From assembly GCA_001598975.1 (NCBI GenBank), contig BBXU01000039.1, forward strand, positions 1-52,429: DNA of 52,429 bases, in the 5' to 3' direction. Positions 9,258 through 42,912 of the stretch are shown in pieces (position 1 is the first letter of the stretch; every line of letters starts with the position of its first letter). Origin of the DNA: Parachlorella kessleri (taxonomy: Eukaryota > Chlorophyta > Trebouxiophyceae > Chlorellales > Chlorellaceae). The position numbers were made by a program, and so were the translations under genes. The notes beneath the pieces were generated by a model. That model searched no databases. It saw nothing but the letters and a program-made list of their open reading frames with translations, and was not told the origin of the DNA.

Positions 9258-11330
9258 ATGAGAGACCTAGGCCTCTTGCTGGATGCAGATGCATATGCCT
9301 TGTGCTGTGTGCAGCAATACCTGAAAGAGCACGGCTACACTGCAGGTATGCTTGGCAGCCACGCAGTGTGTAGAGGCTCAAACCGTGCGGATGGGTGGGT
9401 AGACATCTAGCCAGTCACCTGCCCTGCCCGACCCGCAGTGGTGGGCACCCTGCAGCCTTGCGGGCGCTGGAGCAGGAGTCAAGGGTGATTTTTGTGGATG
9501 AAAAGCTGCCACAGGGCTCAGAGTTGCTCAAGGTGCGGCCAGGGAGGAAGCTTGCAGTGCCAAGCCCGCCCGTTTGCAGGCTCACGTGAAGGTTGATGAG
9601 GCTCGCCACACTTGTTCCTGCGGAGCCTTAAATCGCTGGCACGACACCCAAGCATCCACAATTTGAGCCATTTGCTCCTCCATAGTTGCAGATGGTGTAT
9701 GAGCATGTGTCGGCAAAGCTGAGTGCAAGCTTGCGGGAAAAGAGCAGCCAGCAAGCCCACTTGCAACAGATAGAGGAGGAGCTGCTCCGGGGTGGGACAG
9801 GCGGCTATCCCCAACACCTGCTAACAGCCATATCCCTACCAGCAAATTGCATTTGCTTGGCATGCTGGCCCAGCCAGCGGATGCTGGCTGTGGGTCTTGG
9901 GGATGGCAGCCTGCGGCTGTGCAGCTACGAAGGGGAGGTGCTGGGCAGCTTGGTTGTGAGTAGCAGCGGGGTCCTCAGTGTAGCCATCCACCCCGACGGC
10001 AGCAGCGGGTGAGCGCTGTAAATAGGGTGTTGTGCCAAAATGGCGATCACCCGCGTGGCATTACACCACTCCGCCAGGTCGTCGCCCTTATGCTCATGCT
10101 CTGATGTCGATTTGCGACGAGCGCAAACTTGTCACTTGAGAACCCATGCCGAGTACTCCCCAGTGGGGAGATCGAAGAGTCGAATGTCTGCCTGCAGGTC
10201 GTTTGGCTCCTGCATAGCTGTCGGCTGCATGGATGGCACTGTTTGCCTCGTGAGTATTGCCAACCCAGCGGCCCCGCAGCTTGTGAGCTCGCTGCAGCCC
10301 CACAAGAAGTATGTGGTGGTGCTGAAGTTCTCGCCTGACGGCAAGCACCTTGTGAGCGGCTCCTGGGACCACACTTTTGTGGTGATGACTGTAAGCAGAA
10401 GAGCAGCCGCCACAGCGGACGCAGCAGCAGCGGCGAGCGGCGGCGGTGGTGGTAGCGATGAGACGTTGCTGCAAGCGATACACACAGAGCAGTGCGGGGC
10501 CCAGGTGCAGCATCTTGAGTTCCTGCCTGGCAGTGGCCAAAGCAGGGAACCCCCCTGCTTCCTGGTGGCAGTAAAAGGATCTAACTACCTTCGGCAGTAC
10601 ACGCTGGCCCCCCCGCCAGTTACAGACAGCAGCGGCAGCAGTGGGGGTGGAGGTGGCAACGACGGTGGCAGGGATGGGCCTACTGCGCTTGGGGTGGGGC
10701 TCCAGCCATCATTGGCAGTCCAGGTGAAGGAGATCCAGCGCATCAACATGAATGCCGTGGGCGACGACTATGTCAGCTTCTCAGCCTGCCACCTGGCTGT
10801 GTCACCGGGGGCTGGAGAGCTGCTGCTGGTGTCCGCGGACAACGGCAGGATCCTGGTGCTGGAAGCCCAAGGTACGTGAACCATCCTGGAGGCATAGGGA
10901 GCCAGCTGCTCATGTCTTAAAGCTGCAGGCTCGTTGATCGGCATGTAATAGCAGCAGCTGGTGGTGCCCTTGTGCAGGGGTTGCTAAATCAGTCGCATTG
11001 GAGATGGGCCGCCACCCTGGGCTTTCTTTCATGCCTGACAGCACGGCTTCTTATCGCGCAGGCTGGACGCAAGTGCGTAACCTTTACGGGTTACCCACAG
11101 AGCAGTTCCACCAGTTTGCAGCAGTCTGGGACAGCAGTGGCCATTATGTGCTGGCGGCTGCGGCTCATGGATGGGTGTATGTGTTCGATGTGGCCACAGC
11201 ACGTGTTGTGGCGAATTTCAAAGCTCATGACAAGAATGTGCGTGGGCTGGCATATGATGCTGCCAATAACCTGTTGCTCACTTGCAGCTTTGATCGCACC
11301 ACAAAGGTGTTCAGTGCTGGGCAGGACTGA
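9258..11330 (+). CDS. LisH and WD40 repeat protein
   Basis: Five exons: 9258-9345, 9456-9532, 9692-10008, 10198-10871, 11062-11330, joining to a 474-residue frame. The N-terminus (residues 1 to about 35) has the LisH pattern, a short helix pair with CVQQYLKEHGYTAALRALEQES. LisH motifs drive dimerisation and often precede WD40 propellers. WD-type blades follow: CLACWPSQRMLAVGLGDGSL, SCIAVGCMDGTVCLV, VLKFSPDGKHLVSGSWDHTF, VWDSSGHYVLAAAAHG, AHDKNVRGLAYDAANNLLL and CSFDRTTKVF. Two low-complexity Ala/Gly and Ser/Gly loops (around 10400-10460 and 10620-10680) interrupt the propeller. The short first exon carries the LisH start, and joining exon 1 to exon 2 at ACTGCAG|CCTTGCGG rebuilds the conserved LisH end. 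Probably a scaffold in a multi-protein complex; the exact orthologue is unknown. Confidence 0.86.
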
Positions 11331-25339: not shown

Positions 25340-26076
25340 TCACAGCTTGGACTTGGGCGCTGCAGCATCCAGGATGGGTTGCAACTTCATCGCCAGCCCC
25401 ATGCTGCCCTGGATCTTCAGCTTCCTCATCAAGAACGCCTGCACGAAAGAATAGAATAGGTGGCGGCTGACATTGGGTTCATAAACCTTGACGAGCTACA
25501 GTAGAGCTCACACCAAGGGCTGCAAGCAAGGCAAGGCCAACAGTTCGCAACGAGCTGGAGGCTGGAACGTAGCCAGTATTTTCTGAACCCTCTAGGTGCC
25601 ACCCACCTGCCTTCTCTCATGCCCTCACCTGCTGTGGCCCCAGCTTGCCCATGACCAGCTTGGCAAAGTTCTCATCATTGATGGTGAGCGTCAGGTCAGG
25701 CTGGTCTTCAGGGCTGCCCTTCACCAGGCTGCCCTTGCCTTCACGCAAGTCTAGTGTCCAGTCCTCGCCGTCAATTTTGAAGACAACTATACCCTGCGTC
25801 GGCATGGGTGGTCAGAGGTTGCCCACTAGCAAACTTGCTGCAGAGCAAGCTTGTTAAAAAGTCCAGGGCTGGCAGCTGGTAAGTGCTTTAACCTTGATGG
25901 AGGCTGTGCCACGCACTGCAACAGGCCAAGCCTGGAGCCAACCCAGCACACAAGGCTTCCTCAGGCCTTGCCTTGATTTTGGCTATCAGCTTCTTTCGTT
26001 CGGATTCATCGGCATCCAAGGTTTTAGCTAAAGATTCCAAGAGTGGCTGAGATGCTGACGCCTTAGCCTTCGTCAT
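25340..26076 (-). CDS. SCP2: Sterol carrier protein 2 (SCP2) domain protein, peroxisomal
   Basis: Three exons (5' to 3'), 25972-26076, 25629-25793 and 25340-25438, encode a 122-residue stand-alone SCP2 domain. Conserved parts are GIVVFKIDGEDWTLDLREGK, DLTLTINDENFAKLVMGKL, GPQQAFLMRKLKIQGSMGLA and MKLQPIL. The protein ends in SKL, the canonical type 1 peroxisomal targeting signal. SCP2 binds acyl-CoA and other lipids in a hydrophobic tunnel and supports peroxisomal lipid metabolism. Intron 1 has a GC donor (AAG|GCAAGG) rather than GT. Splicing there joins ..LIAKIK to GIVVFKIDG, exactly the expected SCP2 alignment. A possible 23-bp exon in between would break the frame. The gene is head-to-head with the KNL2-like gene. 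Confidence 0.93.
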
Positions 26077-26385
26077 GATGGCTTGAGTGTACAGGGTTAT
26101 GAAAACGATGCTCACTCCTACACGAGAGGACGACCAGTGCCGCAGACTCTCCAAAGGCCTTCTCGAAAGGTACCCATGTAATGGGCTGGTTTGCAATAAA
26201 GCGATCAAGGCACGCGGAGCAGGGCACAGCTGGCACAAAGAACTTACTTACTAGTTCATATTCATATTCAGGACACCATCTGTAACGCAAGAGGGTGTCT
26301 CAATGAGTTAGCGCGCTTCATACTATTTGCGTGATGAGGCGTTCCTGGGCTGTCGCAGAACCTGCCTAAGTAGACCTTCAAAACC
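26077..26385. promoter_or_regulatory. Head-to-head intergenic region, SCP2 / KNL2-like
   Basis: Only 309 bp separate the two divergent start codons, so the promoters must overlap or lie very close. No specific motif was identified. Confidence 0.5.
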
Positions 26386-29300
26386 ATGGAGCCTCCTCCT
26401 CTCACAGTCACGAAGAAGAGGGATCCCCTGCGTAACGCGTTCGAACAGCAGGACCCTCCTGTGACCTCGGGGTGAGCACTGTGTTACCAACGAGCAACAC
26501 CCAGGTTGCAGTGCAGCTGAACGGGGATAACACCCATCTAACCTCGACTCCTACTGCAGGCCTCTCCAGGTGTTCCGTCCAAACTTGCAGCCAGGTCCTT
26601 TCCAGCAGAGCGCTGCAGACGCCGCAGCCATCAACCGCAGTGTTGAGGCAGAACGCATACGGAGGGAGTTTAGTGCCCTGGTCGGTTCCAGCCCCCTGCC
26701 GCAGGTAAGCAGTCATATTTAAGGTGCAGCACACCCTACGCCGTGGGGGCCTGGGCAACTGACTTTGGTGCACACCAGGAATAGCAGAAAGGCACCAAGC
26801 ACCCCGTCCTGCACTGTTGCAGGCGGTGAGGCAGCCCCTCAGCGTCATATCATACCAGCAGCGGCTCGCTGGTCTCCAAGGCAGCTACAGCAGCCCAGCA
26901 GCAGTAACACCTGCCCTGCGGGGCTTCCAGCTTCCACCACCAGCACTGATTGGGTCAGGAGCGGCACCAGCAAGCCGCCTGCAACATGGTTTACAACCTA
27001 CATTCTCCCCAGCCGAGCCACAGGCTGTCCCAGCTGCAAGGTACCCCAGCGTAGTACAGCAATGGCAGCAGGAGCAGCCGCAGCAGCATGTGGCAGATGG
27101 GAGCTTCAGGCCAGGGGCAAATGTGGAGGTGGAGACCAGCAAGTTCACAAGGGTGCTCCACTCCCACAGCCCCAGCTACCAGGCGGTGGTATCAAGCACA
27201 GTAGAGGTTGTGCGGCAGACGAGCGCAAGGCCGCTGCAGCAGCCCCAGGTTCTGGGCAACTGGCCGCCGGGACATGCTGCATGCCCAGCAGCTGTGGTAG
27301 AGGAGCTGCCAACGCAGCTGCCTAGCTTGCCAGGCCGGCAAGACATACAGCAGGCACAGCAGCAGCACAATCCACCCCCTCAGCAGCAGCCCGTAGTGGT
27401 GCTTCAACTGCCTGTGCTACGGTCCCCACCGACTGTCCCATCTGCATCAACACAAGGCGTGCAGCCAGCAGCAGGGTCGCCAGAAGGACTGCGCAGTAGC
27501 AGTGTCCTTGCGGCATTGGGCATAGGCAGCCGGGGGTCAGTGGAGCTGCAGGAGCCGGCCTTACCTTTGTACACAGCAGATGGAGAGGGAAGTACTCAAA
27601 CAGATCGGCACGTAAGGCAGCCACCAGGCCCCTTACGACAAGAGCAGCAGCAGCCCGGAGGACAGCAGCCAGAAGATCCAGTGCAGCGGCAAGTCCTGCA
27701 GCAGCAGGTGCAGGAGGCTGTGGGAGTCCCTCATGAGGAGTTGGCTCCTTCACTGCAAAGCCCTGCCGGGACGGTTTCGAGGCTTCATGGCTTACCAGAG
27801 CTTGGGGGTGTACAGGGTGCCACCCCCACTAGCATGCAGAAGGCCATGGCCATGGCCCAAGTGGCCAGCCTGGTGCGAGACCTGTCCAGCCCAGTTCCTG
27901 ACGAGCCACCTAAGGCTGGGTGTGTGGAGGAGGGAACGGTCAGGGGTGGTGGCCAGAAAGGGGCTGCAGAGGAGCTGCCAGCAGCTCCAGCCAGTGCTGC
28001 TGGGCTGGGTGCTGGACCCTCTCGTTTTGCAGCTCAGCAGCACACAGCAGACATGGGCGTGCACCACCCTTCCTGTGCAGAAGAGCAGCAGCAACAGCAG
28101 CCGCAGGAGCAGCAACAGGAGGTGGGGCAGATGCAGCAGGCTGACGAGCCTGCTGCTGAGGGCCGGCAGGCAACTGCAGCAGCTGAAAATGAGCTTTCTG
28201 ATGAAGCAGGAGCCGAGGCTCCTCTTGCAAACCCTGCAAGGTCCCCTCGGCTGCCAAGGCCCAGCAAAGGCACCAAGCCGAGCAAGGCTGGGGTTGCCAA
28301 GGATAGCAGCAGGCGTGTGAAAACCGAAGGAGCTGACGCAACGGCATCGAAGAAGTGAGTGCTGCCCCTGGGATTGTGTCTCATCTTGGTAGCCTGGAAG
28401 ACATAATATCTCGCCCGGGTTGCCGCCTCCAGTGCATCAACGTGCAACATTCATCATGGAATAGGGGACGGCTAGTGAGCCGTGCTGCTGTGAGTGCGGT
28501 GCAGGCGGACAGGAATGTCTAGAGAAGCTGCGGCTCTTGCAAGATCGGCCCAGATGATAACCGGCAGGGACGCAGCAGGAGCTGAGGTGAGCCTGCGAGG
28601 TCAGTATGCATGGCAACCTCTGGGCTAATGTCACCCTTGTGATGTCGCCTGATATATCGCATCACCTGCAACGCTGGCGGCTCTCATGCTTTGATCAGCT
28701 GTCATTTGCCATGTTTCCCATCCAGTCTTCATTGCCGTAATTGCAAACTTAAACCCTACACCCTTCAACCCGAAATCTGATAGCATGTCAGTTACATGCT
28801 CTGCAGGGAGCAGTGCCGAAGCGTGCCCGGCTCAAGCCGCTGCCTTACTGGACCAACCCGCGGGTGGTGTTCAATGCTAACAAGGAGGTCGTGGCTGTGG
28901 AGGGAAGCGAGGACCTGCTGGGGCTGTCCGACCGGCAGCAGCGGCAGCCACTGCAGCAGCACGCCAGAGGCCCAGTTGCAGGTCAGTCCAACGCCTGCAG
29001 CTGCACCGCTTGCCCGCATGCTCAGTGGGCTCTTGTTAGCCTTCAAAGCTTCAGCAGGCACATCTTCAAGATTGCTGCAGTAAAGCTGCTTCCATGGTGT
29101 AGGTTATAGCTGTGGTGCACATTGGTGATGCCGTGATATGGATCATGACTATCACAACTGAGTGCAGGGGTTCAGGCAGTGAAAATGCCTAGCAAGGCCC
29201 AACAGCTGAAGACAGAGCCTAGCAGCGATCAGCAGCATGAAACCGGAGCTAACAAGGGGGAGCAGGCAAGGGTTGCACCTGTCAAAGCCTCCAAGGCCGG

Positions 29301-32293
29301 TGCAGCTAAGGAGCCTAAGCCGGAGCGAAGGAAAGCCAACGTAGCACCCAAGGCAGCAGCGTCAGCAGCTGAGCAGGAGCCAGGCGGAAAAGCGTCAAAG
29401 GACAAGCCAGTCGTCCAGCAGGATGTGCCCAAAGCTCAGCCGGTCACCCGCCAGAGAGATGGTCAGCGCAGCAAGGCTGGAGGCGCTGGTGCTAAGCCTG
29501 CAGACGTGGTGCTGCAGTTGCCTGAGCACCTGGCAGCGGAGCAGCAGGGGCCTCTGCAGCATAAGCCAGCCAAGCGATCCAAGGTACACACAGAGCAGCA
29601 GGAAGGGCAGCGGCGCGCACAGCATGGGAAAGTGGAGGTCGAAGCTGCCAAGCAACTGCAGCAGCTGGGTCAAGGTGCTGGCCGCAAGGAAGCTGCTGCG
29701 GAGGATGGCCGAGGCCCAAGCTCAGCGGCTGCGTCTGACGCTCAAAAAAGGGAAGCGGGGATGCATCGCCTGGCAGCCCTGGCGCTGTCGGCAGGCGTGC
29801 ATGCAGCACAGCAGGCGGGGCGGCAGCAAAAGGCTCGGATGCCTGCAGCACAAGCTGCACCCGACGGTGGTGCAGGAGCACCTGGTGGTGCAGCAGCGAC
29901 CCCTGCCCGAGATGGTGGGCAGGCACCAAACGCAGCCGTGCCAGCAGCATTGCCAAGGGTGGAGGGCGTGCCGCCCGACGTGGTTCGGCAGTTAGCGGAG
30001 CAGCAGCCTAACCAACGACACCGCTGCGGGCACTGTCGGAATTGCCAGCGGCCCCAGGCCAAGGCGGGGTGTTTAGCCTTGCGAGCCTTGCGCGAGCAGG
30101 CAGCTCCTGGTGAAGGTGCTGCCACCCCTGCTTCACCAGCAGGGAAGCAGCATCGGCAGTCGACAGGCAATCGCCAGCACATAGCACCACCGCTCCCAAC
30201 TGGCGAGGTGCCTTTGCCGGCTTCAGCTGCGCAGCAAGGGCAGCCAGGCAGGACTGCAAGGCAGCCACCGAAAGCTGCAGAAGGCGGAGGCGGGGCAAAG
30301 GCACCGGGTAGCAAGCGGCGAGCAGTGGAAACAGCTGCTGGCCAGGAGCCAGAACCTGCCGGCAAGAAGGCTCGGGTGAATCAACCGGTCAGGCAGCGCC
30401 AGCGGCAAAGGCAGCAGCAGCAGCAGCACCAGCTTGAAGATCGACGTGAGGATGCAGGCCACCCAGAGAAGGTGGAGCCAGTCATTGAAGCTCAAGGTGA
30501 GGAGGTGGGCGTGCATTGGGGACTTAACTTGGTTTGGTTATCGCTATGTCGGTGATGCGCAGCTTCTGCTGTAGTATGCAGCTGACATGCAACCAACCAG
30601 CACGGGAGTGGCAAAGAGCCCTGTGCGCTGTCATCACAGAAGTCAAATTGTGCACTGTGTGGGTGTTTCCAAAGCTGCAAGCATGCCCTCGGTCTGCTGC
30701 ATACACTTAATTAAACACAGACGGCTTCACATGCAGGAGAAGGTGCGCATGTACCGGATGAAGCAGAGGAAGAGGTTCCTGATGAGCAAGGCTGGACTGG
30801 CAGCCAGGCAGCAGCGTTGCAAAGCGCCTGGCTGCAGATCAACCCCACCGCCCCCAACTTCTGGCAGCTGGTTGCCAAGCAGGTAGAGGGGTGCTGGGGG
30901 TTGAAAAGGGCTGTTGGCCCACTGGCGTGTGAGGGTATTGTGGGTACATTCCTGTGTGAGAACTTGGGAAGGGAGAGGGGAAGCTGCTCCACATCATGCG
31001 CCACCAATTTGGAGTTGCACAGTGCCTAACCATTACATGTTCACCTTTTGCTACCATTAACAGGTGCCTGGCAAGACTGCCTCTGACTGCTACAACCGCC
31101 ACATGGCCAAGCATCCGACACCCACCCACGCAGCTCGCAAAGCTGCCCCCAAGAATTTGTTGGCGGCAGCCAAAGGCGGGCCCCGCATGCCTGAGCTTAA
31201 GCCAGGTGGGTGGCCATCTAATGTCCTGCAGGGCGCTTGGGATCAAATGTATGCTATGCCCCGCTTACACGTGAACAAGCTCGTACTGGTGAGGTAGTTT
31301 CCGTGACTGGCACGAAGGGAGGCTATATGCAAGAAGTGGCTGTCTGTCACTGTCCACATCTAGCTTTTTCTGGGTGCAGGCGCTTCCAAGCAGGCACTCC
31401 AGAATGCAGCCCGGAGGTATGCTCGTCAGCTCCAGTGGCAGCAGAAAGCCAACAAGGTGCAGGTAGGCGTTCAGGGCTTAGCGCGCCTACAAGTCAACCC
31501 AATCTTGATTCCAGGATGATGCTTGCTGGGAACTTGCACACCTGCCTGGGCATGTCACTGGCTTGCCATTATGGGTATGGCAATAAACCTGCCTGCAACG
31601 GAAGGCAAGAAGGGTTGCTTTTAGGAGTGCATGGACTGCAGCACCCTGCAGCTTCCCTGGTGCCTGGATACTGAACGCAGGGAGCCAACAGATCGCTTGC
31701 AAAGTTGAACCGAATGCAGGATTTGCGTGACGGCGACCACAAGGTTGGCGAAGGGCTGCGTGAGGAGATGGAGGTGGCTGAGAAGAAGGGGCGTTACATC
31801 GACCAGATCCTGCGCAAGCGGCAAGGCCGACCCCTAGGGATGGCGGCCCGTGGCAGAAAGCCAGCATCTGGACCGCTGGCCCCGTGGGCGCAACAGCAAC
31901 AGCCAGGCGGGAGCGCTGGAGGGGCTGCGCTGCAAGTTGGGCAGGTGCGGCTGTGCTGGCAGTCTGGATACAGGGCTCGTTGTTGCTCACAGGTTGCAGC
32001 CTGCGGGGCAGGAGGGCAAGCATGTCTGACATGCTTGCTGTCCCAGGTCCTGCTATCGGTTCCACGCAATTGATGGGGAAGCAGTCTAGACATGTGTGAA
32101 AGGCATTACATTGGAACATTGTGAAGAGGATTTGTGCTTTAAGTTGCAGGCTGCCCCTGGCGTCCGTTTGCTAGCAGCAACTGAGACTGAACGCGACGTG
32201 CGTGCTGCGCTGGCTGGCCTGACGCCGCAGCATGACTCGGAAGAAGACAGGGACAGCTTGGAGGGCGAGGATTACTACTGGAGTGATGCCTGA
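26386..32293 (+). CDS. KNL2/M18BP1-like protein: CENP-C motif, CXXC-like half finger, SANT/Myb domain
   Basis: Eleven exons: 26386-26471, 26560-26704, 26823-28354, 28505-28586, 28807-28981, 29168-30496, 30737-30882, 31064-31205, 31380-31462, 31681-31944, 32150-32293, giving 1375 residues in one frame. Most of it is disordered and Gln/Pro/Ala-rich. Three islands stand out. Residues 619-635 read VPKRARLKPLPYWTNPR, matching the CENP-C motif (R....KPL.YW). Residues 960-975 form CGHCRNCQRPQAKAGC, the Cys pattern of half a CXXC finger. Residues 1135-1180 form a SANT/Myb domain (WTGSQAAALQSAWLQINP, FWQLVAKQVPGKTASDCYNR). CENP-C-like motif plus SANT is the makeup of M18BP1/KNL2, which loads centromeric histone CENP-A. 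The usual N-terminal SANTA domain was not recognised. The small exon 28505-28586 is needed to bring the CENP-C motif into frame. The start ATG opens MEPPPLTVTKKRDPLRNAF. The family call is an inference. Confidence 0.75.
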
Positions 32294-40349: not shown

Positions 40350-42912
40350 ATGTCAGGGGCCAGCAGTGATGACGATGATATGCCAGAGCTGCAGCTGCTA
40401 GTCGCTCCACAGCTCGCACCAGCCAGCTTGCCCCCACCACCGTCAGGTGCCCAACCTGCCACTGAGACCACAGACGCCCCTGCACCTGTGCCAGTCACTT
40501 TGATAACAGGGTGAGGACCGCTACCCACCACTCGGTCCATGTCCCACTGGGGACCCCTGTCGGTGCCGCTGGAGAGGGCACAGACAAAGCTGCGGGCCCT
40601 GAAACTGGTTAGGTGGTGTCACACAAGCTCTGTCGGAGTGCTAAAAGAGGGTAGAGGCGCGCAGTAGCCTGCGGGCAGAAATCAAGAGGCCATCTGCCCA
40701 TGCAGATACCTGGGAGCTGGCAAAACAACCCTGGTCAACTACATCCTGACCGCCAAGCACGGGTGCAGGTGCGCTTGCATGGCAGACCACCCGCCCCAGC
40801 CGTGCATCTGCCATTTTTACCTCCTGTGCGAGTTGGACAGAGGTGGGTGTTGGGGATCCGTTGGCTGGCGGGCGGATCAGGCGCTGACTCTGGTTATGCA
40901 CCCTCTGCAGGTGTGCGGTGCTGCTTAACGAAATCGGCGACTCGGCTGATGTGGAGCGAGCGCTGGTGAAGGAGCCAGAGGTGTGGGGATGGGCAGCTTG
41001 AACCCTTGGTGCAGGCTAGGGGAGGGAGGCCTTTTGTGAAGGGGCATCTCCGCCACTCGACAAAGTGCATGGGAGGTCCCTGCTGCTCCCCCTTGTAGGC
41101 CTTGCTTTGTAGGGAGAGCGGTCCCCATTGCTAACGTTTGTGAGCAGCTTGCCCTTGCAACCAACGCCCTGCAGGGCTCCGAGGCGGCCGCCATGGACGA
41201 GTGGGTGACTGTTGAGAACGGCTGTATCTGCTGCAGCAGCAAGAACGACATGGTGAAGGCCCTGGAGGCGCTGATGCAGCAGCGGGACAGGTTCGACTAT
41301 GTGGTGATTGAGACCACAGGTGGGTGGGTGGGTGGTGATGGGTCTGTCCATGGCGGGTGTGGCGGTGGGGTAAAGGGGGCTGGGGCAGAAAAGGTGCGCT
41401 CACCCCCACTAGCTCCATGCAAGTGCCCATCCTCTGCACTTATGTGGTAGCAGCGCCCTGCAGGGGACATGTGTGGTGTGTAGTCCTATTTGCCAGCCTG
41501 CCTGCCAGCCTGCCTGCCAGCCGGCCTGCCTGCCTGCCGCCTGTGGTGCTGATGAGCAGCAATATATGGTCTGGTGTGGGGCATGGGTGAGGCATCACAG
41601 GATACTAGCCCCAGGACCGCCTCTGCTCCATGTGCAGTCTGTCATGCAGCCTGCAGTTCCCTCGGACCGATACCCCCTTGCAAGGGCTTGTGAGCAGGTC
41701 TGGCCAACCCCGGCCCCGTGGCCGCCGCCCTCTGGACAGACGCCGAGCTGGAGAGCAGCATCTGCCTGGACGCGGTGGTCACAGTTGTGGATGCCAAGAA
41801 CATTCTGCGCCAGCTGCGGGATCAGCCTGGCCGTAATGCTGAGGCCCAGCCGGGCGCTGAGGCTTCGGTGAACGAGGCACAGCAGCAGCTGGCATTTGCG
41901 GATGTAGTGCTGCTGAATAAGGTGCGCAGCGATGGCAGGGATCACTCCTAGGAGAGCGAGGCTCGCGGGCAACAACTTCTTGCATGCTGTTGACGGCATG
42001 GACCGTCACTGTGTTGCTCATAGAGAATTTGAAGTGTGTAGCCTGTGCAGTGTTTGTGCAGCAAGCTTGCCAGAGGAGATACTGAAGCAGAAAGCGAGCA
42101 GTGGGCAGTGGTACGCTTGATACTGCTCTCAGGATGCATTCCTGTAGCCGCTGCGACTGCTGCCCCTTGTGCAGGTTGACCTGGTCAGCCCGGCCCAGCT
42201 GCAGGAGATCATGCGGGAGATCGCAGCCGTCAACGGCGATGCGCGCGTGCTGCCCTGCCAGCGGTGCCAGGTGGACCTGGGCCATATTCTCAATACCGGC
42301 ATCTACTCTGGCACCCTGGCAGGGCCTGCAGCTGGGCCCCAGCCCACACCCCTCCCCAAGGCCTCAGTGGGTGATAGCACTGCTGTACCAGCAGCACCAC
42401 AGCAACGGGACGGCCAGGCAACGGACCTTGCAGTTGAGGAGGCCTGCTGCGGCCATGCAGCCAGCGAGCAAGAGGCAGGGGCAGCTGACATTGACACCGG
42501 GCATCATGCCCCGGCCTGTTCCCTCCACGGGGCCGGCTGCAGCGGCGGCCACGGCCCGCAGCACCAGCAGGGCCTGGACGCGGCCACACAAGTGCGGACG
42601 CTCAGCATCCTCCTGCCCGACCGGCCGCTGCAATTGGAGCGCTTGCGCCACTGGCTGGATGACCTGCTGTGGGAGGAGCGTACCCCTGACCGGCCCGACA
42701 TTTTGCGTGTGAAGGGGCTGCTGTGGGTGCAGGGCAGCCCGCACAAGCATGTGTGCCAGGCTGTGTATGACATATATGATGTGGTGGAGGGCCCGGCGTG
42801 GCAGAGTGACGAGCGTAGGTTCAGCAAGCTTGTGTTCATAGGCCGACGGCTGGACCGGGCAGCGCTGGCTGCACAGCTGGGAGATTGGCTTGCAGACAAT
42901 GGTGACATGTAG
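40350..42912 (+). CDS. ZNG1: Zinc-regulated GTPase metalloprotein activator (ZNG1/CBWD, COG0523)
   Basis: Six exons, 40350-40510, 40706-40768, 40911-40980, 41175-41319, 41698-41921 and 42175-42912, encode 466 residues. Key parts are Walker A GYLGAGKTT (54-62), AVLLNEIGDSADVE, the metal-binding CxCC (CICC, 115-118), ETTGLANPGPV, VVTVVDAKNIL, FADVVLLNKVDLV (guanine base recognition NKVD), RCQVDLGHIL, and the CBWD C-terminal domain (LRHWLDDLLW, VFIGRRLDRAAL). COG0523 GTPases deliver zinc to client enzymes such as methionine aminopeptidase 1. A low-complexity Cys/His-rich insert (residues about 310-352: CCGH, GHH, HGAGCSGGHGPQH) may hold extra metal. The N-terminus has DDMPELQ where animal ZNG1 has the CPELVPI client-binding motif. 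All junctions are GT-AG. Confidence 0.95.
41491..41541. repeat. GCCT/CCAG microsatellite in ZNG1 intron 4
   Basis: Interspersed CCTGCCTGCCAGCCTGCCTG units in an intron. Confidence 0.85.

What the first reader, a model, noticed from the sequence alone, without database searches (positions are those of the whole stretch)
26386..32293. Probable algal KNL2/M18BP1 centromere-licensing factor with CENP-C motif and SANT domain but no visible SANTA domain
Seen: the reconstructed 1375-residue protein has VPKRARLKPLPYW (residues 619-630) and a SANT domain ending FWQLVAKQVPGKTASDCYNR. Known: CENP-C motifs (R....KPLxYW) bind CENP-A nucleosomes. KNL2 of plants and M18BP1 of non-mammalian vertebrates combine a SANTA domain with a CENP-C-like motif, and M18BP1 adds SANT. 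Inference: this is the chlorophyte counterpart, with SANTA lost or too diverged to see. Centromere licensing factors are poorly described in green algae.
Basis: partly seen in the sequence, partly recalled or inferred. Interest (0 to 1): 0.8.

Follow-up and report, generated by a model that had tools for sequence, protein, structure and literature searches.

The report
Green-algal KNL2-like centromere licensing protein
A green alga carries a gene that looks like the missing algal version of the protein that marks where chromosomes rebuild their centromeres, but built without the domain normally used to recognise that family.

Summary
An 11-exon gene at 26386-32293 (+) encodes 1375 aa with an internal CENP-C motif and a C-terminal SANT domain; no SANTA domain is detectable. 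Nine homologues without a functional name share the layout wholly or in part: CENP-C motif, half-CXXC zinc finger, SANT, helical tail, DYYWSDAE end. Seven of the ten proteins carry both motif and SANT; three are fragments or a broken model. A motif profile finds only CENP-C, Mif2 and chicken KNL2 entries among solved structures (7 of 7); its reversed control finds none of them.

The same genome, Parachlorella kessleri or a close relative, encodes a Mis18 homologue (human Mis18-alpha E 8e-8), a CENH3-like histone and a separate gene with a more canonical CENP-C motif. So a Mis18 partner exists, and the window protein is probably not the alga's CENP-C.

Best reading: a KNL2/M18BP1-like CENH3-licensing factor without SANTA and with an added half-CXXC finger. 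I do not file it as a proven family member: SANTA was tested and not met, and the SANT does not single out M18BP1. A 2022 survey found no KNL2 in five algae, and papers of 2022 and 2026 say Mis18 is unidentified in plants. Both statements become directly testable.

The parts
26386..26471 (+). exon 1 (aa 1-28), start codon
   Evidence: GT donor, frame
26560..26704 (+). exon 2 (aa 29-77)
   Evidence: AG/GT borders, frame
26823..28354 (+). exon 3 (aa 78-587), Q/A/P-rich
   Evidence: AG/GT borders, open frame
27129..27221 (+). conserved N-terminal block VETSKFTRVLHSHSPSYQAVVSSTVEVVRQT (aa 180-210) with an S-P site; candidate Mis18-binding element (inferred)
   Evidence: shared with P0002 and P0009, 3 of 10 family proteins; 12 invariant columns of 45; not in the other models; no relative in the PDB
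28505..28586 (+). exon 4 (aa 588-615); least certain exon
   Evidence: needed for frame (phase 2 to 0); no homology support
28807..28981 (+). exon 5 (aa 616-673)
   Evidence: AG/GT borders, frame
28813..28851 (+). CENP-C motif VPKRARLKPLPYW (aa 618-630), predicted CENH3-nucleosome reader
   Evidence: motif profile: 7 of 7 PDB hits are CENP-C-motif proteins (7on1 by recall, 7y7i); reversed control none
29168..30496 (+). exon 6 (aa 674-1116), K/A/Q-rich linker and zinc finger
   Evidence: AG/GT borders, frame
30025..30072 (+). half-CXXC zinc finger CGHCRNCQRPQAKAGC (aa 960-975)
   Evidence: in 8 of 10 family proteins; Pfam zf-CXXC weak in 2 of 8 segments, best 0.0064; weak PDB hits to CXXC proteins
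30737..30882 (+). exon 7 (aa 1117-1165), first half of SANT
   Evidence: donor GTAGAG at 30883
30790..30882 (+). SANT domain, first part (aa 1135-1165)
   Evidence: fold seen on homologue P0002
31064..31205 (+). exon 8 (aa 1166-1212), rest of SANT at 31064-31123
   Evidence: AG/GT borders, frame
31380..31462 (+). exon 9 (aa 1213-1240), conserved helix SKQALQNAARRYARQ
   Evidence: helix in models
31681..31944 (+). exon 10 (aa 1241-1328)
   Evidence: AG/GT borders, frame
31795..31839 (+). conserved YIDQILRKRQGRPLG block
   Evidence: in 9 of 10 family proteins, with substitutions in P0001, P0006 and P0007
32150..32293 (+). exon 11 (aa 1329-1375) and stop
   Evidence: AG border, frame, stop
32270..32290 (+). 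conserved C-terminal end DYYWSDA
   Evidence: 9 of 10 family proteins

Best explanation
This is a KNL2/M18BP1-like centromere-licensing factor of a trebouxiophycean green alga. Predicted mechanism: (1) its CENP-C motif docks on the CENH3 nucleosome, with arginines on the acidic patch and Tyr-Trp on the hydrophobic CENH3 C-terminal tail (contacts recalled from CENP-C structures); (2) the half-CXXC finger and SANT domain add contacts to chromatin; (3) an N-terminal element recruits the Mis18 homologue encoded in the same genome, possibly under CDK control; (4) this marks existing centromeres for deposition of new CENH3. Shown here: gene model, motif, SANT, family conservation, absence of detectable SANTA, and presence of a Mis18, a CENH3-like histone and a separate CENP-C-motif gene. 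Inferred: nucleosome binding, Mis18 binding, centromere localisation and licensing.
For: Motif profile: 7 of 7 PDB matches are CENP-C-motif proteins, including 7y7i, which PMC13294675 names as the chicken KNL2 CENPC-like domain with a CENP-A nucleosome (passage); reversed control 0. SANT profile: human MIS18BP1 is 2nd and 4th of 29 PDB matches (1wgx E 1.2e-5, 9f5w E 2.5e-4; that KIAA1903 in 1wgx is MIS18BP1 is recalled). Non-mammalian M18BP1 combines SANTA, SANT and a CENPC-like motif (passage). Nine homologues share the layout wholly or in part. Mis18 homologue: Pfam PF03226 E 8.6e-17, 61.7 bits against a cut-off of 26.6; 3 of 4 PDB hits are Mis18. CENH3-like histone with a W-containing loop and hydrophobic tail RRIRGPIYGVCAF. 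A separate CENP-C motif on C105 (6 of 6 PDB hits CENP-C/Mif2, five by name and 7on1 by recall). All 5 genome matches to the C-terminus are this locus.
Confidence: 0.7

Rival explanations
1. It is the alga's (or a second) CENP-C: a kinetochore scaffold that reads CENH3 nucleosomes with the CENP-C motif, lost its cupin domain and gained a SANT domain, acting in kinetochore assembly rather than licensing.
For: The motif profile matches CENP-C/Mif2 better (E 1.7e-4 to 0.039) than chicken KNL2 (E 0.74); no cupin CENP-C_C domain was found in the genome.
Against: A separate gene on C105 carries a more canonical CENP-C motif, GIRRSTRQKQSPLQWWRGE. SANT domains are, to my knowledge (recalled), a feature of M18BP1/KNL2 and not of CENP-C. 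Mis18 is present. The cupin search is exon-wise and weak: the real Mis18 only reached E 0.495 that way.
Confidence: 0.13
2. It is a SANT/CXXC chromatin regulator, not centromere-specific, whose arginine-rich KPLPYW stretch docks on ordinary nucleosomes or another partner and only resembles a CENP-C motif.
For: The SANT is close to DNAJC2 and Myb-type domains; the half-CXXC finger weakly resembles those of KMT2/HRX, MBD1 and CpG-binding protein. The window motif alone reaches only E 0.037, and pattern matches in the genome are no more frequent than in the reversed control (6 against 8).
Against: All 7 PDB matches of the family motif profile are CENP-C-type, with R, R, P, L, Y and W invariant in the 7 aligned sequences. 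The five other pattern matches in the genome lie, judged by eye, in stop-broken or implausible contexts.
Confidence: 0.12

Closest known systems
M18BP1/KNL2 of non-mammalian vertebrates (chicken, Xenopus)
   Same: CENP-C-type nucleosome motif and a SANT in a long, mostly disordered protein; a Mis18 homologue in the same genome.
   Different: No detectable SANTA; extra half-CXXC finger, YIDQILRKR block and DYYWSDAE end; N-terminal Mis18-binding region not recognisable.
alpha-KNL2 of land plants
   Same: Green lineage; CENP-C-type motif (CENPC-k).
   Different: Arabidopsis alpha-KNL2 has SANTA and lacks SANT (passages); here the reverse. Mis18 is reported as not identified in plants; this alga has one.
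CENP-C/Mif2
   Same: The nucleosome-binding motif, its best PDB matches.
   Different: No cupin domain detected; SANT and zinc finger present; another gene in the genome has the more canonical motif.
CXXC zinc-finger proteins (KMT2/HRX, MBD1, CpG-binding protein)
   Same: CGxCxxC plus a distal Cys, basic surroundings.
   Different: Only one CGxCxxC module of the usual two (recalled); matches are weak.

Membership tests
KNL2/M18BP1 | SANTA domain (PF09133) | tested here: not met
   Window protein: no match at E<=10; 0 of 9 homologues at E<=1; P0002 model has no strands, but is mostly low confidence. The stretch 26050-26400 before the start has no open + frame longer than 60 codons. Extreme divergence is not excluded.
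KNL2/M18BP1 | CENP-C-type motif (non-mammalian vertebrates, plant alpha-KNL2) | tested here: met
   7 of 7 PDB profile matches are CENP-C-motif proteins; window motif alone best hit CENP-C E 0.037.
KNL2/M18BP1 | SANT domain C-terminal to the motif (vertebrate type) | tested here: met
   Pfam Myb in 7 of 7 segments at E<=1, best 1.8e-8; window piece E 0.0019, below the curated cut-off; P0002 SANT modelled at pLDDT about 94; order motif then SANT.
KNL2/M18BP1 | SANT specifically of M18BP1 type | tested here: inconclusive
   M18BP1 2nd and 4th of 29, DNAJC2 first; by structure 1wgx 4th.
KNL2/M18BP1 | N-terminal Mis18-binding region with CDK sites | tested here: inconclusive
   Conserved HSHSP block in 3 of 10 proteins but no kinship shown; a Mis18 homologue exists in the genome.
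KNL2/M18BP1 | Centromere localisation and CENH3 loading | not testable with these tools
   Needs cell biology.
CENP-C | CENP-C motif | tested here: met
CENP-C | C-terminal cupin (PF11699) | tested here: not met
   Window protein at E<=10 and 9 homologues at E<=1: no cupin; SANT and helices instead.
zf-CXXC | Two CGxCxxC zinc modules in one finger | tested here: not met
   Each finger has one CGxCxxC...C module; Pfam zf-CXXC in 2 of 8 segments at E<=1, best 0.0064.

The most novel reading that the evidence does not exclude
Green algae did not lose KNL2. They keep a KNL2-Mis18 licensing pathway in which SANTA has been lost and a half-CXXC zinc finger helps find centromeres by reading their unmethylated CpG DNA, linking CENH3 and DNA hypomethylation in one protein.
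Probability: 0.2. Interest if true: 0.87.

Novelty: new variant of a known kind. Interest (0 to 1): 0.74.

Why it matters
A 2022 survey of 90 plant species did not retrieve KNL2 from any of five algae and left open whether it is absent or diverged beyond recognition (PMC9210943 section 5). Papers of 2022 and 2026 state that Mis18 has not been identified in plants (passages). This locus gives a concrete candidate that SANTA-based searches would miss, plus a clear Mis18 in the same green-lineage genome. If right, the Mis18-KNL2 pathway would go back to the green-plant ancestor and have been remodelled twice: Mis18 and SANT lost towards land plants, SANTA lost here (inference). Chlorella CENH3 chromatin has been mapped by ChIP-seq and described as hypomethylated (PMC11005252, passages), so the idea can be tested now.

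Tried and rejected
SANTA in the genome: PF09133 gave 0 candidates, but nothing rang in the controls, so this is no evidence of absence. Cupin CENP-C_C: 0 candidates, also weak evidence. Scm3/HJURP: one 28-position match at E 1.22 on C1211, not convincing. RuBisCO large subunit to name the organism: none found; the organism was inferred instead from a 98% identical Parachlorella kessleri Mis18 protein. Homology support for exon 4: none (24 of 200 shuffles reach the score). The N-terminal HSHSP block against the PDB: three irrelevant weak hits. The C-terminal region modelled from P0008 has low confidence (mean pLDDT 59.5); no fold is claimed. Genome-wide pattern [RS]-[FILMV]-x-P-[FL]-x-Y-W: 6 matches against 8 in the reversed control; one is the window's own, the other five look like noise by eye. 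This pattern does not fit the C105 motif, which one search found.

Rows dropped: P0010 (E 0.26), a two-repeat Myb protein by eye. P0001 is in the family but was not returned; its gene model breaks inside the CENP-C motif. P0005 was left out of the motif, SANT and finger profiles as a near copy of P0003/P0004; so these used 7 of the 8 proteins that hold each block. Literature: the ten searches cover open-access PMC only and were seen as listings; passages were read in five papers and one whole section in PMC9210943. No algal KNL2 or Mis18 report was seen, which is not proof that none is in print.

Full report
OBSERVATION. The CENP-C-like stretch VPKRARLKPLPYW is aa 618-630 and the SANT is aa 1135-1185. 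In the 50.9 Mb assembly all five matches (E<=1) to its C-terminal region are at this locus.

FAMILY. Two protein searches found nine homologues, none with more than 'hypothetical protein' as a name. P0003-P0009 came from one search, which listed nine proteins; P0002 was part of the query, and P0010 at E 0.26 was dropped as a plain Myb protein. Alignment of the ten proteins shows a shared layout. An N-terminal HSHSP block occurs in 3 of 10. The CENP-C motif, in homologues mostly TRFGRPRVKPLAYWSSERL, is intact in 8 of 10. A half-CXXC finger, RCGxCxxCxxPxxKxxC, is in 8 of 10 (twice in P0006). The SANT is in 8 of 10, a YIDQILRKR-like block in 9 of 10 and the end DYYWSDA(E) in 9 of 10. Seven of ten have both motif and SANT. 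The other three are a broken model (P0001) and two fragments (P0008, P0009). P0002 carries every block in one predicted protein, so the window's exons very probably belong together.

DOMAINS. A profile of seven motif sequences matched 7 PDB sequences at E<=10. Five are named CENP-C or Mif2, one (7on1) is Mif2 by recall, and the last is 7y7i (E 0.74). [quoted passage not shown] The reversed alignment matched only one unrelated sequence. The window motif alone gives CENP-C at E 0.037, and 4 of its 8 hits are CENP-C/Mif2. The SANT profile matched 29 PDB sequences: DNAJC2 first (8.3e-7), MIS18BP1 second and fourth (1wgx, 9f5w; that KIAA1903 is MIS18BP1 is recalled). The window SANT alone ranks them 8th and 16th of 18. 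So SANT is certain, M18BP1-type SANT is not. AlphaFold on P0002 is mostly low confidence (mean pLDDT 46.6). It shows a confident SANT, a moderately confident finger, helices near the C-terminus and no strands. Pfam finds no SANTA in the window protein at E<=10 or in nine homologues at E<=1. The finger profile has 21 weak PDB hits: the best three are engineered proteins matching the stretch before the cysteines. Eight are KMT2A/B-HRX, MBD1, CpG-binding protein or TET3, known to me (recalled) for CXXC fingers, and 4hp1 is a ninth by recall. Pfam zf-CXXC appears in 2 of 8 segments, best E 0.0064.

PARTNERS IN THE SAME GENOME. A weak exon-wise Mis18 signal became clear when four exons on C723 were joined: Pfam Yippee-Mis18 E 8.6e-17, and human Mis18-alpha (E 8.4e-8) and two chains named kinetochore protein mis18 as 3 of 4 PDB hits (that 7sfz is human is). 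A public Parachlorella kessleri protein is 98% identical, so the window is from that trebouxiophyte or a close relative (taxonomy). Among the histone matches, C824 encodes a CENH3-like histone: RWTAEGLTALQEAAEDFMVHLLEDCNLCAIHAKRVTI, ending in a hydrophobic tail PIYGVCAF. C1487 encodes a second, more diverged form. A recalled, approximate plant CENP-C C-terminus found one place in the genome at E<=10, C105, with GIRRSTRQKQSPLQWWRGETKNF (E 0.00997). All six PDB matches of that stretch are CENP-C/Mif2 (five by name, 7on1 by recall). No cupin or SANTA was seen in ten ORFs around it, so that this gene is CENP-C is likely, not proven.

MECHANISM. In vertebrates M18BP1 is needed to bring Mis18 to centromeres. 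In chicken and Xenopus M18BP1 binds CENP-A nucleosomes. N-terminal segments bind the Yippee domains and are blocked by CDK phosphorylation at T40 and S110 (passages of PMC9210943; PMC11315898; PMC13294675; PMC5245964). The algal protein has the nucleosome motif, a SANT after it, a Mis18 to recruit, and a CENH3-like histone with a hydrophobic tail to read. The HSHSP block, which looks like two short beta stretches around an S-P site, is a candidate Mis18-binding, CDK-regulated element; this is inference only. The half-CXXC finger is an addition. Because Chlorella CENH3 chromatin is described as hypomethylated (PMC11005252, passages), a role in sensing unmethylated centromeric DNA is an attractive but untested idea.

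MEMBERSHIP AND NOVELTY. Published KNL2 proteins are described as having SANTA (PMC9210943 and PMC13294675, passages). SANTA was tested here and not met, so I do not file the protein as a proven KNL2; I say it most likely works as one. The 2022 survey used Arabidopsis alpha-KNL2 and its domains as BLAST queries and found none in five algae (section 5). A SANTA-less homologue would probably be missed by such a search. Within the open-access literature searched (listings) I saw no report of an algal KNL2 or Mis18. The class is a new variant of a known kind.

Noticed in passing
G000:C723:2375-3474 (L039): A Mis18 homologue (Yippee domain plus a longer C-terminal tail) in a green alga, although recent papers say Mis18 has not been identified in plants; a 98% identical Parachlorella kessleri protein is annotated only as hypothetical.
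   Followed up: yes
G000:C1487 (L040) and G000:C824 (L041): Two different divergent H3 genes, both with a W-containing CENH3-type loop and hydrophobic C-terminal tails; the C1487 form is strongly diverged and may be a second CENH3 or a specialised paralogue.
   Followed up: partly
G000:C105:13074-13154 (L053, L054): A separate CENP-C motif (RRSTRQKQSPLQWWRGE); an upstream open frame repeats EGVPERW and nearby frames have acidic DDGFDY-type stretches. Gene structure and any cupin are unresolved.
   Followed up: partly
P0006, about residues 340-370 and 475-505: One homologue carries two half-CXXC fingers, which suggests the module can duplicate within the family.
   Followed up: no
window, about 25620-26080: A gene on the - strand that reads by eye like an SCP2 sterol-carrier domain protein starts about 300 bp upstream, leaving little room for a missed upstream SANTA exon.
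   Followed up: no
window 10022-10873 and 42148-42906: Stretches of a WD40 protein and a CobW C-terminal domain protein (Pfam).
   Followed up: no
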